Assembly: GCA_008692225.1 (NCBI GenBank) | Contig: VICG01000014.1 | Location: 186,001-250,000, forward strand | From: Monilinia fructicola | Lineage: Eukaryota > Ascomycota > Leotiomycetes > Helotiales > Sclerotiniaceae | Reading direction: 5' to 3' | DNA: 64,000 bases | Shown: one piece after another, positions 33,497 through 38,676 of the stretch | Layout of the letters: each line of letters begins with the position of its first letter | Position numbering within the stretch: position 1 is the first letter of the stretch | Notes under the pieces: model-generated | Told to the model about the DNA's origin: nothing | Database searches by the model: none | Seen by the model: the letters and a program-made list of their open reading frames with translations, nothing else | Program-made: the position numbers and the translations under genes

Positions 33497-34508
33497 TCAA
33501 TGGTTACAACCACCAGGACCACAAATCCCCTGTTCATCCCTCCAGCCTGTAAAGTTGAATACTCCATTATAAGCATTATCAAGTGCCCATTGATGTATCT
33601 ATTTATCATCAGTAAGTTAACGACGTTCCTAATACAAAGAAAGGAATTCACAAACCGCATCGAAATTCCGGCATGTATGCATAACATTGAAGTTACTAAT
33701 AACTAGATTCCTATCGGGATGATATTGGAAGACTTGTGGTGTGACATCTGAGAAACACTGTAGGGATTGGCGGAGAGAATTAAAACAGTGGTGTGCATGA
33801 TCAGTGCTATAGAGTCCGCCCTTGAAGTTTTCAGGCCAGGGGATACTATAAGGGTTAACCGTAGAATTCCATTTGGGATCTCTGAGGTAGCCAAGAGTGA
33901 GACGAATTGCGTCCTTGATCAAAGTCAGGACCGTGTAATAAAGAGGACAGAATAATAGTTGAAACACGTACAAGGCAATGAAGATCATGGAATACAGTTA
34001 AGACGATTGGATAATCTTCATCCGACCCTGGTAATGCAGCAGCCGTCTTATTGAGAAGTTGAGAAGCTTCTGATTTGGAGAGTGCGGTATCCCCAACATA
34101 ATGCAAATTTCTCCATCTCTCGTTGCGCTCCGGAGTAGGAGGACCTGCCCACTCATCATCGATCTTTGGAATAGGATTCTCAAAATTTCGATTGTGGTAT
34201 TCTATAGCACTCTGTGCTGGTGCTGTTGAAGATCAGTCTTGGTCAAACTAAGTATGAGACTGATACTCACTATACATCTGTTGGAATACATCTTTTCTCG
34301 GGGGCCAAGATTGCTTGAGAGTAAAAGCAAGAAGAAAGAAGTTGAAGGTTATTGACGTAACCAAGATGAATGTTAGGAATGGCCTAGGTTTTTCTTGGAA
34401 AGTTGGATATCCATTCTCTTTGTCTATAAATGGTTCATTTGTTTCTGAAGCATCATCATGCTGTTCTGCTTCATGATACTTTTTCCAGCGTAAAAAGTAT
34501 GAATACAT
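33497..34508 (-). CDS. UstYa-family (DUF3328) RiPP oxidase
   Basis: Exons 34271-34508, 33972-34222, 33656-33913 and 33497-33598 (reading right to left) give 849 nt, or 282 residues. The introns are 48, 58 and 57 nt. After a polar cytosolic tail there is one transmembrane helix at residues 44-64, then YTPAQSAIEYHNRNF, typical of the family. Both diagnostic HxxHC copper-binding motifs are present: HDLHC at 158-162 and HAHHC at 202-206, the latter followed by LRQSLQCFSDVTP. HTCRNFD and WALDN close the domain. Characterised members of this family (PF11807) catalyse oxidative cyclisation or ether cross-linking of Tyr-containing core peptides in ustiloxin, phomopsin and asperipin pathways; some act as halogenases or hydroxylases. 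The gene points away from the repeat precursor 1.6 kb to the right. It is fully intact although genes to its left are broken. The exact reaction is not deducible. Confidence 0.93.
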
Positions 34509-36104
34509 TTTGAAGAGAACGAGAAAGAATGAGTTGATGAAATGTTCAGAACTCTAAGTTTATTCTGCTCTTTCGCATCAAGAGAGCATTCAAACCTTGG
34601 ACATGTTGTCTTATCAGTGCCATTCGTCTTTAGCGCGATTCACCTTCCTGATTCATCCATTTGGGGGAGGATAGACTGCATGTCAGGCTCTAAAGTGATG
34701 CTGTCGTAATAGTTCATGTATATTGCATAGGTCGTAGGAGTGCAGCATTTCAAATATTTGACCTAGCCACAAGTCCATGTGATCGAGCCGTCTATATGCA
34801 GTCAGATTTTCTCCACTTAACATTGAAACCCTGGGGACATAACGTGAAGAGCATACTGGAGTGATAAGGATATAACTTAGATAGACTTGTTGGCAAGTTC
34901 GGCTTGGTCATGTAAGATTTTAGCTCCGAAAATAGTTCGCATTCGGGTGATACCTCGTCCGGCTTACACCTATTACGAAGAATGTATACATCTGATTGGA
35001 AATTCATCATACGTCGATGAACCTTAAAAATAATAAGCAACTCTTTAAGAGATAGGAAGCTAGGATCCTACGGGAGGCGTAGGCACTTTGTAGAAAATAT
35101 CTCCAAAATTGATATCGGCAACTAAGGTTTCGTTCCTTTAACGAGGACCCAGAAGCTAGATTAACAGAAAGACGATGATAAAACGGGTTATAGGACATTG
35201 AAGGCAAGTGAGAAGCGCCTGCATGATTGTGTAGCCTATTGCTCTAAGATATGCGTGGGTTATACATATACAGGGATTATGAAGGACTTAGCATGATAGC
35301 CTCTTGGATCACATTCAGAAACATGCTACCTCTATTCAGATGAGAGTATCAAGTTAATAACCATACTTTGAATGATTGGATACTCTTGAGCATCGTGAAT
35401 AGCTGAACAGTGAAGTTTTATGTAACATCGGAGGATTAGTTAAGCAACAGGTAAGAAAACTAAGATGAGGTGATCTACCAAGACGAGAGACGATAGCGAT
35501 TCATTGCATTGCATAGCACTCTATGATCTTACAACTTGTAAGCTGAATATAGTCCAACGTGAAATCTACCGAATGAGGTACAGAATATCAGCTTCTCATC
35601 AGAAAAGCCAATGTGGAAGTGCTGGCAATGATCGTCTGGTGCATATGCATTATCCGCAGACGTAGAGCACAAGACGTGGGACATTGTTAGAATAATCACG
35701 AAGTAAGTCCAAGGATTTACTGAAACAAACTTCGCGATGGTGCCATGATGGTTATCCTGTCGTGATGATCATTCAAAGAAGCACATCGAGAGATCCTTGC
35801 TGCATCCATTCGATAGTTTGTAAAAAGTGAGAATGACAACAGAGGGGTAAAAAGAAACTCTACAAGGAGATTGATCCGAGGATTCTTCGGACATCAGGAT
35901 ATCTGGGACATCGATGGAACAAAAGGGAAGGATAAATTGGTATAAGAAGAGGTAGGCCCATCGTCAATTTTCATAATAAACATCAAGAGATTTAACTTTG
36001 CTCAGCATTTCGAAGCAAGGAAGATAAAAGAAACCAGGTTCCCAGTTAGTATAATAGGTGAAAAGCAACATACGAGCATTGACTGATGAGAAACAAGAGA
36101 AACT
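34509..36104. other. region between oxidase and precursor
   Basis: Shared upstream region of the divergent UstYa-type gene and the repeat precursor, so promoters of both should lie here. The part at 34792-35200 on the minus strand contains protein-like frames (see that entry). No regulatory site was identified with confidence. Confidence 0.45.
34792..35200 (-). pseudogene. possible gene remnant in RiPP locus
   Basis: Two minus-strand frames adjoin. One begins at ATG near 35200 and holds SLKERNLSCRYQFWRYFLQS. The other covers 35040-34792 with NFQSDVYILRNRCKPDEVSP and SKLYPYHSSMLFTLCPQGF, and its frame is followed after a stop by RRLDHMDLWLGQIFEML. The composition looks like real protein, but no family or catalytic motif is visible; it is not a UstYa, P450 or tyrosinase by motif. 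It could be a lost pathway gene or chance. Confidence 0.25.
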
Positions 36105-36734: not shown

Positions 36735-37500
36735 TTCAACCCACGATCCGAAATCTTCTAAGCAGGTTACTAACACTTGACTGTAGAGCATCACACTTGA
36801 CGTTCAGATAATATTAATGACCAGTGTGGAGTCATCAGAAAGAAAAGGCCGGTGAAAGCAGAATTTAAGATGGAGTAGTCTATGGAGAGCTTGATGGTTT
36901 CGGTTTCTACTTGGAAACAATTTTTTCTGGCTCTCAAACCTCAATGAATTTACCATACATGGCATTCTTTAGGAGCCATGAAAGCAAACGTAGTACCGTT
37001 ATTTTCTTTGGTTGAAATGAACTCGCAATTTCTTGTATCTTTGTGCAAAAGACCATGCATGAAGATGGTGATGTGCTGAGCTGTAATTCGATGGTCGCGT
37101 GGTAATTTTGCGCAAAAATCAGTGCCGTAACTTGAGTTAGAGCTGTGTTGCTTGAAGACACTTCTTCATGTTAAGCCTCAATCATGCATAGTGTCTTAGT
37201 CCTTGGCGATATAAAAAGATGGAGGACGCAAAAGTAGAAAAAGGAATCGATGAGATCTGGATGGGAAGTCGTTGTTCTTTTCTTACTAATCAACCATAAG
37301 TCAGAACCAACCTTAAAGGGTTTAGTGCCTGAGGGTGTGATATAATCCCATGTGACCAGGATATACTTCCGGTCCCAAAACGAAAAAAGAGATATATGAT
37401 GGGACGGTATGATAGCAGGCTAATTCTAACAACTTGATTCTTTCTTTATTTATAACACTATTGCAACTCGAAGTTCTTGCTATGGGAGTTCTTCTTAAGG
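36735..37500. other. convergent intergenic region
   Basis: Separates the 3' end of the repeat precursor from the 3' end of the dehydrogenase. A TA-repeat-free, moderately AT-rich stretch; no gene recognised. Both genes should terminate here. Confidence 0.45.
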
Positions 37501-38676
37501 TTATGAATGTGGCTGAACAATTATATTGATAGCTCCACCTGGACGATCTCCCACAGTCTTAATCGCATCATTAACTTCATCCAAAGAGAAGAACTTGTGT
37601 CGAAGAAATGAAAAGTCGATGATACCGGCTCCAATCAACTCGATGAGCTCATCTATCTCCGCGCTATTGAACCACAATGTGCCATTAACACTAACGTCGT
37701 GTACCATAGCTTCGCCATAAGATTGAACAATATCACCGCCAACCCCACCAGCAGCTAATGCTACTCTTCCACCACGTTTCACTGAGCCAATCAGTTTACT
37801 GGTGCCACTTGCATCGCCCCCATTACCAAGGCAATCATAAAGACCATCGGTACCGAACCCGTTTGTCTGCTCCTTGATCCATTCAAGAATATCTCCCTCA
37901 TCTTCAGTAGAACGAACAGCGATACGACCCTTATGAGTCGACAATTTCTCGATCTCGGCAAGACGTTCTTTATTCCGTCCAATTCCCAAGATCTTCGTGC
38001 ATCCAAGTCCCAAAGCTATAGCAACTGCGGCATATCCTAGGGTACCCGTCACACCGTTGATGAGGAGAGTTTTGCTCGGACCCATTCCACATTTCTTGAG
38101 GCCGGCATAGGAGGTCCCGATATAACCAAATCGAGCCGCGGTGTTAATGTCAATTGATGGAGGTACTACCGCAATATTTGCATCAGGCGAGAGCAAGTAT
38201 TGTGAAAGTGAACCAATGGGATATTGTTTGAGAATTGCCTTGCCTTCCGGGGAACCATTGCCAAAAGTAGGCACGCAAACATCCCCAGGTACACAATTCT
38301 CTCCTCGCTATAAGTCATCTATTAGCAAATAGAAAGTAGATTCTTGACAGTTGAACTCACCCCGACGGCATTGCTTGCAGTTGCCGCAAGATATATGTGG
38401 GTCAACATAAACTCTGTCCCCTGGTTTTAGCCCAATAACATTCTCCCCTATGGCCTCAATAACACCAGCAGCATCTAGGCCAAAGACACATGGCAGCTCT
38501 GGTAAGGTGTAATATTTCTTTTGTCCATCATTTATGACGTTGGCACTGTTTGGGACCAGACAGGCAGCTTCGACCTTAACAAGAACATCTTTCGGCCCTG
38601 GAACCGGTCTCTCGATTGTTGTTGTTATTAAAGGTTTTCCTGGTTCTATCAGTTGTGCAACTTTCATACCAGGCAT
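37501..38676 (-). CDS. MDR-type zinc-binding alcohol dehydrogenase lacking catalytic-zinc ligands
   Basis: Exons 38361-38676 and 37501-38303 join through a GTGAGT...CGAG intron of 57 nt into 372 residues. Start chosen at MPGMKVAQL; an upstream in-frame ATG would only add a basic extension. The GroES-like N-domain is followed by CGNCKQCRRGENC, which keeps the Cys pattern of the structural zinc site. The Rossmann fold has GVTGTLGYAAVAI and binds NAD(P). The usual catalytic-zinc residues are replaced: the GHE motif reads GLD (CVFGLDAAGVIEAIG) and the first catalytic Cys region reads AACLVPNSA. The enzyme may therefore work without catalytic zinc, like quinone-reductase-type members. It sits tail to tail with the repeat precursor. 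A role in finishing the peptide product is possible but only inferred from position. Confidence 0.88.

What the first reader, a model, noticed from the sequence alone, without database searches (positions are those of the whole stretch)
33497..38676. Compact dikaritin-type RiPP locus with an LLYGYGQE core
A signal-peptide precursor with nine Kex2-bounded repeats lies next to an intact UstYa-family oxidase carrying both HxxHC motifs, with a reductase-type enzyme tail to tail. This is the minimal set known from the ustiloxin, phomopsin and asperipin pathways. The repeated two-Tyr core does not match any named product I know. No tyrosinase, methyltransferase or peptidase is visible nearby, so the product may be a simply cyclised peptide.
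Basis: partly seen in the sequence, partly recalled or inferred. Interest (0 to 1): 0.88.

Follow-up and report, generated by a model that had tools for sequence, protein, structure and literature searches.

The report
Fungal UstYa–repeat-peptide RiPP gene pair
In a brown-rot fungus, a gene for a secreted protein made of repeated LLYGYGQE peptides sits head to head with a gene for a peptide-modifying copper-type oxidase, so the fungus probably makes a small tyrosine-modified cyclic peptide of a known kind with a core sequence I did not find described.

Summary
On a fungal contig, probably Monilinia fructicola, an intact UstYa/DUF3328 gene (282 aa, three introns, both HxxHC motifs) is divergent from a signal-peptide precursor with Kex2-type repeats. 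Two corrections. Eight LLYGYGQE units are in frame, not nine. The dehydrogenase beyond the precursor is a zinc-type MDR enzyme, not the isoflavone reductase reported for asperipin; the named relatives of the two enzymes share only the genus Sclerotinia, so it is probably just a neighbour. The core is constrained: at least 12 nucleotide changes among the eight copies, none altering an amino acid. One metagenomic relative keeps the leader and the ETPAP-type spacer but carries LYYFYG in place of LLYGYGQE, as expected of a RiPP precursor family. Three further repeat frames lie near UstYa matches in the same genome, and in all four cases the nearest match is divergent. Best reading: a two-gene dikaritin-like pathway in which UstYa oxidatively cross-links the Tyr-containing core. 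Product and chemistry are inferred; synteny in relatives could not be tested. The kind is well known; the core and precursor family appear new. New member of a known kind.

The parts
33497..34508 (-). UstYa/DUF3328 gene, 282 aa; introns 34270-34223, 33971-33914, 33655-33599; one N-terminal hydrophobic segment; HDLHC and HAHHC
   Evidence: gene model; Pfam PF11807; 96% to Monilinia laxa EYC80_008506; model of that relative puts each HxxHC on its own helix
34509..36104 (.). 1.6-kb intergenic stretch between divergent UstYa and precursor; candidate shared promoter region (inference)
   Evidence: coordinates; 3 of 3 ORFs tested that lie wholly inside it had no Pfam match
36105..36734 (+). Kex2-repeat precursor, 209 aa, no intron
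36105..36161 (+). signal-peptide-like N-terminus MKTISSIALVAYLAYQASA (cleavage site judged by eye)
   Evidence: sequence; similar leader in P0001
36255..36662 (+). eight in-frame LLYGYGQE units starting at 36255, 36309, 36363, 36417, 36471, 36528, 36585 and 36639, each followed by KR or KKR
   Evidence: synonymous-only variation
36663..36734 (+). tail of the frame: last KKR, an ADAETPAP spacer, then a ninth repeat copy that is out of frame
37501..38676 (-). zinc-type MDR dehydrogenase, 372 aa, intron 38360-38304 inferred (a second acceptor gives 371 aa); probably a neighbour, not a pathway gene
40636..42988 (-). Zn2Cys6 transcription-factor-like gene in several exons; possible regulator, membership untested
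   Evidence: PF00172 over its cut-off, PF04082 just under it

Best explanation
A two-gene, dikaritin-like RiPP pathway. The precursor enters the secretory route (inferred from its leader). Kex2 cuts after KR/KKR to release units of about 18 residues, such as SEAETPAPLLYGYGQE-KR; C-terminal trimming of the basic residues and N-terminal trimming of the acidic/proline spacer would leave a peptide near LLYGYGQE (inferred). The lumen-facing UstYa, a probable binuclear copper oxidase using its two HxxHC motifs, oxidatively cross-links or otherwise oxidises the core, most likely through one or both Tyr (inferred from ustiloxin, phomopsin and asperipin). Shown here: the genes, motifs, divergent pairing, constraint on the core and one relative with the same spacer but another core. 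Inferred: processing, chemistry, product and function.
For: UstYa intact with both motifs. In 19 aligned relatives H159, H162 and C163 are invariant and H203, H206 and C207 at least 90% conserved (P0002 numbering); the predicted fold has an N-terminal helix over the hydrophobic segment and each HxxHC on its own helix, as described for copper-dependent CctR (PMC12435403, parts 1 and 2 of 3 read). Eight core copies have 7 distinct DNA sequences, at least 12 changes and 0 amino-acid changes; all-synonymous probability about 9e-9 under a crude equal-rate model. P0001 has a similar leader (MKTFSSLAILACLAYQASSLP) and ETPAP/ETPSP spacer but LYYFYG before KR. Twenty UstYa places in the genome; stretches within 3.5 kb of one make up 0.34% of it. 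Three repeat frames lie within 2.8 kb of UstYa matches outside the window (4 of 19 places, two of them beside one frame on C6); with this locus, 4 of 4 nearest matches are divergent. Umemura 2020 (PMC7329392, sections 6-7 and passages): 1758 of 7878 KEPs have DUF3328 genes within 15 genes, with the maximum at the next position.
Against: No expression, product or synteny data. The precursor search found one relative, none from a named fungus, so it is not shown that species with the UstYa relative also carry the precursor. No Monilinia protein appeared in that search, so the precursor is apparently unannotated. The ninth unit is out of frame. The spacer is constrained too (at least 6 changes in its last six codons, one variable residue), so constraint alone does not single out the core. 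No transporter or peptidase seen nearby among the ORFs scanned. DUF3328 enzymes also hydroxylate and halogenate, so cyclisation is not assured.
Confidence: 0.72

Rival explanations
1. The precursor yields a linear secreted peptide (signal or pheromone-like) released by Kex2; the adjacent UstYa gene is unrelated to it.
For: Most KEPs (6120 of 7878) have no DUF3328 gene nearby, and the same genome has a repeat precursor at C7:156 kb, AAGLLALLPPGHQ-KR, with no UstYa match near it. The acidic spacer after KR recalls the yeast alpha-factor spacer (recalled, not tested).
Against: A random place lies within 2 kb of a UstYa match with chance about 0.2%; in 4 of 4 cases the nearest UstYa match is divergent from the repeat frame; the core has two Tyr, and Tyr is commoner in DUF3328-linked KEP repeats (65.6% against 38.2%).
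Confidence: 0.16
2. A three-gene asperipin-like pathway in which the dehydrogenase reduces the cyclised peptide.
For: The dehydrogenase lies 0.77 kb from the precursor, tail to tail, and is the only match in the genome at E <= 1e-20 when its Sclerotinia trifoliorum relative is the query (29 candidates scored).
Against: AprR is called an isoflavone reductase; this is a zinc-type MDR enzyme, and 0 of 22 NmrA matches lie on this contig (that isoflavone reductases fall under NmrA is recalled). In the 120 listed of 730 hits the named relatives include Sclerotinia trifoliorum, six Botrytis species, Glarea, Rutstroemia, Rhynchosporium, Cadophora, Oculimacula, Zymoseptoria, basidiomycete yeasts and actinobacteria; no named row is from Xylariales. 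UstYa's 20 hits include Monilinia, Sclerotinia sclerotiorum and six Xylariales proteins; no named row is Botrytis (order names recalled). The only shared named genus is Sclerotinia, and by eye no contig length is common to the two lists. Weakness: many rows are unnamed, and no Monilinia laxa row is named in the dehydrogenase list.
Confidence: 0.08
3. A decaying locus: the precursor is losing units and the pathway no longer works.
For: The ninth unit is out of frame; the repeat precursor beside another UstYa match (C3) also changes frame within its array.
Against: Eight units keep the same core with only synonymous change; UstYa is intact and 96% identical to M. laxa. Small sequencing errors in repeats are possible: M. 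fructicola Mfrc123 (44.05 Mb, 20 contigs) is listed with BUSCO 88 complete (98 partial), and the paper reports more than 100 indels in its own PacBio assembly, which it then fixed by hand (PMC8070815, passages).
Confidence: 0.05

Closest known systems
Asperipin-2a pathway (aprA, aprY, aprR, aprT; core FYYTGY)
   Same: Repeat precursor plus one DUF3328 oxidase, no tyrosinase among its four genes; several Tyr in the core (gene list and core from PMC6514808, passages)
   Different: Core LLYGYGQE; 0 of 22 NmrA matches on the contig; no transporter seen nearby among the ORFs scanned; the dehydrogenase here is of another family
Ustiloxin and phomopsin pathways
   Same: Signal-peptide precursor, Kex2 sites, UstYa-type oxidase, Tyr in the core
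   Different: Those have 2 and 5 DUF3328 genes and need a tyrosinase (PMC7329392); here one DUF3328 gene and no tyrosinase match on the contig
Kex2-processed repeat proteins (KEPs) of Umemura 2020
   Same: Signal peptide, near-identical units separated by Kex2 sites, DUF3328 gene next to it
   Different: Core and leader could not be compared with their types: the sequence logos and the additional-file type table were not readable here
P0001, metagenomic repeat precursor
   Same: Similar leader and ETPAP/ETPSP spacers, 45% identity over 89% of the query; its first unit also reads APLLYG
   Different: Most units have LYYFYG; contig of 998 bases, neighbours unknown
CctR, copper-dependent DUF3328 hydroxylase
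   Same: Double HxxHC, one membrane helix, each motif on its own helix
   Different: Acts on a non-ribosomal peptide and hydroxylates it

Membership tests
Dikaritin-type RiPP locus | Secreted precursor with repeated core units bounded by Kex2 sites | tested here: met
   8 in-frame units, each ending KR/KKR; signal peptide judged by eye only
Dikaritin-type RiPP locus | DUF3328/UstYa protein with two HxxHC motifs (class-defining enzyme, PMC12048977 passages) | tested here: met
   HDLHC and HAHHC, PF11807
Dikaritin-type RiPP locus | Oxidase gene next to the precursor gene | tested here: met
   1.6 kb apart, divergent
Dikaritin-type RiPP locus | Tyr in the core | tested here: met
   two Tyr per unit, conserved in all eight
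Dikaritin-type RiPP locus | Oxidatively cyclised product | not testable with these tools
   needs mass spectrometry
Dikaritin-type RiPP locus | Precursor-oxidase synteny in relatives | not testable with these tools
   UstYa relatives found, but the DNA around them was not available; the precursor search gave one hit of unknown neighbourhood
Asperipin-type subset | Isoflavone-reductase-type AprR | tested here: not met
   0 of 22 NmrA matches on this contig; the dehydrogenase is MDR zinc type
Asperipin-type subset | Transporter AprT | tested here: inconclusive
   the only transporter seen is a sugar transporter at 6789-8418, about 25 kb from the UstYa gene; 36 ORF translations were scanned, not all ORFs
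Ustiloxin/phomopsin-type subset | Tyrosinase in the cluster | tested here: not met
   0 of 13 tyrosinase matches on this contig

The most novel reading that the evidence does not exclude
One UstYa alone, with no tyrosinase and no dedicated reductase, turns a Tyr-Gly-Tyr-Gly core into a mono- or bicyclic Tyr-cross-linked octapeptide, within a precursor family in which the spacer is fixed and the core is exchanged between species (LLYGYGQE, LYYFYG).
Probability: 0.35. Interest if true: 0.6.

Novelty: new member of a known kind. Interest (0 to 1): 0.42.

Why it matters
It adds an apparently unannotated cyclic-peptide pathway, with a core I did not find described, to a crop-associated fungus. In the Monilinia genome papers sampled, term searches for ustiloxin and RiPP gave nothing (PMC8959702; PMC8988988; PMC8228255; PMC8070815; passages or single sections seen, not whole texts); one transcriptome paper names a DUF3328 transcript that I could not tie to this gene (PMC5987419, passages). 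The leader/spacer motif and the divergent arrangement suggest a simple rule for finding more. If UstYa alone suffices, it would be a small system for studying copper DUF3328 cyclisation.

Tried and rejected
Rejected: nine intact repeats (eight are in frame). Rejected: the dehydrogenase as an AprR equivalent. Tried without result: solved structures for UstYa by profile (one match, E 0.66); NCBIfam for the M. laxa UstYa, the precursor and P0001 (no family, apart from a sub-cut-off PPR repeat match in the precursor); papers holding LLYGYGQE, LYGYGQ or YGYGQE (one unrelated paper); papers on Monilinia with RiPP, UstYa or KEP terms (listings seen); a second member of the precursor family in the own genome, with P0001 as query (both hits fall on or beside this same precursor) and with the precursor itself as query (three hits: itself, a second frame over the same array, and one weak hit, E 0.02, the C7 repeat precursor). 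A DUF3328 transcript over-expressed in M. laxa (T323, PMC5987419, passages) could not be tied to this gene. A structure-library search was not run, because the model's mean pLDDT was only 67.6.

Limits: repeat precursors were sought only around the UstYa matches, at C7:156 kb and in the window, so their number near UstYa is not compared with a background rate; the scan looked at ORFs of 50 aa or more with repeated words before KR/RR, so intron-split precursors can be missed; distances are to domain matches, not gene ends. The synonymous-change probability ignores shared history and conversion among repeats. The UstYa homologue search scored 198 candidates, the dehydrogenase search 7993 (120 of 730 listed), the precursor search 7997. 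Genome family searches score only the best candidates.
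Full report
Where it is. The window is C14:186001-250000 of a 44.03-Mb, 20-contig genome. Its UstYa is 96% identical to Monilinia laxa EYC80_008506. Size and contig number match the M. fructicola Mfrc123 assembly as listed in PMC8070815 (44.05 Mb, 20 contigs; passages). I take it as Monilinia, probably M. fructicola; this is an inference.

The oxidase. On the minus strand, 34508-33497 gives a 282-aa protein after three introns of 48, 58 and 57 bases with GT...AG ends. Pfam UstYa (PF11807) is over its cut-off in two of the three exon frames tested (51.9 and 56.3 bits against 25; the first-exon frame has no match). 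The first motif is HDLHC and the second HAHHC. In an alignment of 19 of the 20 hits (P0015 was left out; the first row is the M. laxa protein), the histidines and cysteine of motif 1 are invariant and those of motif 2 conserved in 90% or more; the exception seen is P0010, whose gene model departs before motif 2. The AlphaFold2 model of the M. laxa protein has mean pLDDT 67.6, a helix at 44-70 and the two motifs on helices 156-174 and 201-218. PMC12435403 (text parts 1 and 2 of 3 read) reports that CctR of this family holds two coppers per monomer, loses activity when the motif residues are changed, and uses O2; in its predicted structure each motif lies on its own helix.

The precursor. At 36105-36734 (+) a 209-aa frame starts MKTISSIALVAYLAYQASALP and holds LLYGYGQE at residues 51, 69, 87, 105, 123, 142, 161 and 179, each followed by KR or KKR. 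A ninth copy lies out of frame and the protein ends after it. I do not know whether this is biological or a sequencing error; another repeat precursor in the genome (C3) also changes frame inside its array. The eight core units have seven distinct DNA sequences, 9 variable columns of 24 and at least 12 changes, with no amino-acid change; about 21% of random changes in these codons would be silent, so 12 of 12 has a crude probability of 9e-9. The last six spacer codons, compared over seven spacers, show at least 6 changes and one variable residue, so the spacer is constrained as well.

Relatives of the precursor. One protein in the 5.8-billion set passed E 0.01 (P0001, JGI metagenome, 998-base contig). 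It has a similar leader and the ETPAP/ETPSP spacer, but most of its units read LYYFYG-KR; its first reads APLLYGLV-KR. Conserved leader and spacer with a changed core is the pattern expected of a RiPP precursor family, though it rests on one relative. No Monilinia protein was found, so this gene seems unannotated. P0001 used as query in the own genome finds only this place.

Same design elsewhere in the genome. Thirty PF11807 exon matches merge into 20 places. I read 10 kb around the 19 others (17 of the 18 stretches, some holding two places; the 18th was the C7 repeat precursor). Three repeat frames lie within 2.8 kb of 4 of these 19 places: TAIVYPAE-KR on C3, DVVKNAWSA-KR on C6 (two UstYa places nearby) and PWDE-KR/WDE-KR on C1. 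With this locus, in 4 of 4 cases the repeat frame and the nearest UstYa match are on opposite strands and point apart (chance about 1 in 256 if the four orientations are equally likely, my arithmetic). The second UstYa place on C6 is on the same strand as the repeat frame. A further repeat precursor, AAGLLALLPPGHQ-KR at C7:156 kb, has no UstYa match nearby.

The dehydrogenase. 38676-37501 (-) is a 372-aa MDR protein with ADH_N and ADH_zinc_N. Among the 120 listed of 730 hits, named rows include Sclerotinia trifoliorum at 82%, six Botrytis species at 59-81%, other Leotiomycetes, Zymoseptoria, basidiomycete yeasts and actinobacteria. UstYa's 20 hits include Monilinia, Sclerotinia sclerotiorum, six Xylariales proteins (Nemania, Hypoxylon, Xylaria) and, lower, Penicillium, Beauveria and others; no named row is Botrytis. 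Among named rows the only shared genus is Sclerotinia. Cautions: many rows are unnamed, and no M. laxa row is named in the dehydrogenase list, so absence from a list is weak evidence. AprR of the asperipin set is an isoflavone reductase in PMC6514808 (passages). I conclude that the dehydrogenase is more likely a neighbour.

Other neighbours. An ankyrin-repeat frame lies at 31014-31709 and a Zn2Cys6 factor at about 40636-42988, which could be a regulator; this was not tested. 0 of 13 tyrosinase and 0 of 22 NmrA matches lie on the contig. Of 36 ORF translations scanned with Pfam, none matched a peptidase or methyltransferase; not every ORF was scanned.

How it most likely works. Secretion, Kex2 cleavage and trimming release a peptide near LLYGYGQE, and UstYa oxidises it, most likely to a Tyr-linked ring. 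Precursor, oxidase, pairing and constraint are shown; processing and chemistry are inferred by analogy with ustiloxin, phomopsin and asperipin-2a.

Known or new. Umemura 2020 (PMC7329392; sections 6 and 7 and passages seen) counted 7878 KEPs, 1758 with DUF3328 genes nearby; the type table in its additional file could not be read, so this core may be listed there. LLYGYGQE, LYGYGQ and YGYGQE were found in one paper of the library, unrelated by its title and abstract. The kind is known, the member appears new, and the interest is moderate.

Noticed in passing
L016 (G000:C3:3521268-3521699): Repeat precursor with TAIVYPAE-KR units divergent from a UstYa match 2.8 kb away; the array changes frame within itself.
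   Followed up: partly
L019 (G000:C6:545567-545761): Repeat frame DVVKNAWSA-KR with Trp instead of Tyr, 1.4 kb from one UstYa match and 2.4 kb from a second.
   Followed up: partly
L021 (G000:C1:2437794-2438210): Dense Trp-rich repeat frame, PWDE-KR alternating with WDE-KR, divergent from a UstYa match 2.3 kb away.
   Followed up: partly
L029 (G000:C7:156 kb): Repeat precursor AAGLLALLPPGHQ-KR with no UstYa match near it; may give a linear peptide.
   Followed up: no
window 53180-53878: A second zinc-dehydrogenase-like frame (PF00107), about 15 kb from the first.
   Followed up: no
window 55315-55548: AAAT microsatellite of about 58 copies inside an A+T-rich stretch towards the right end of the window.
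   Followed up: no
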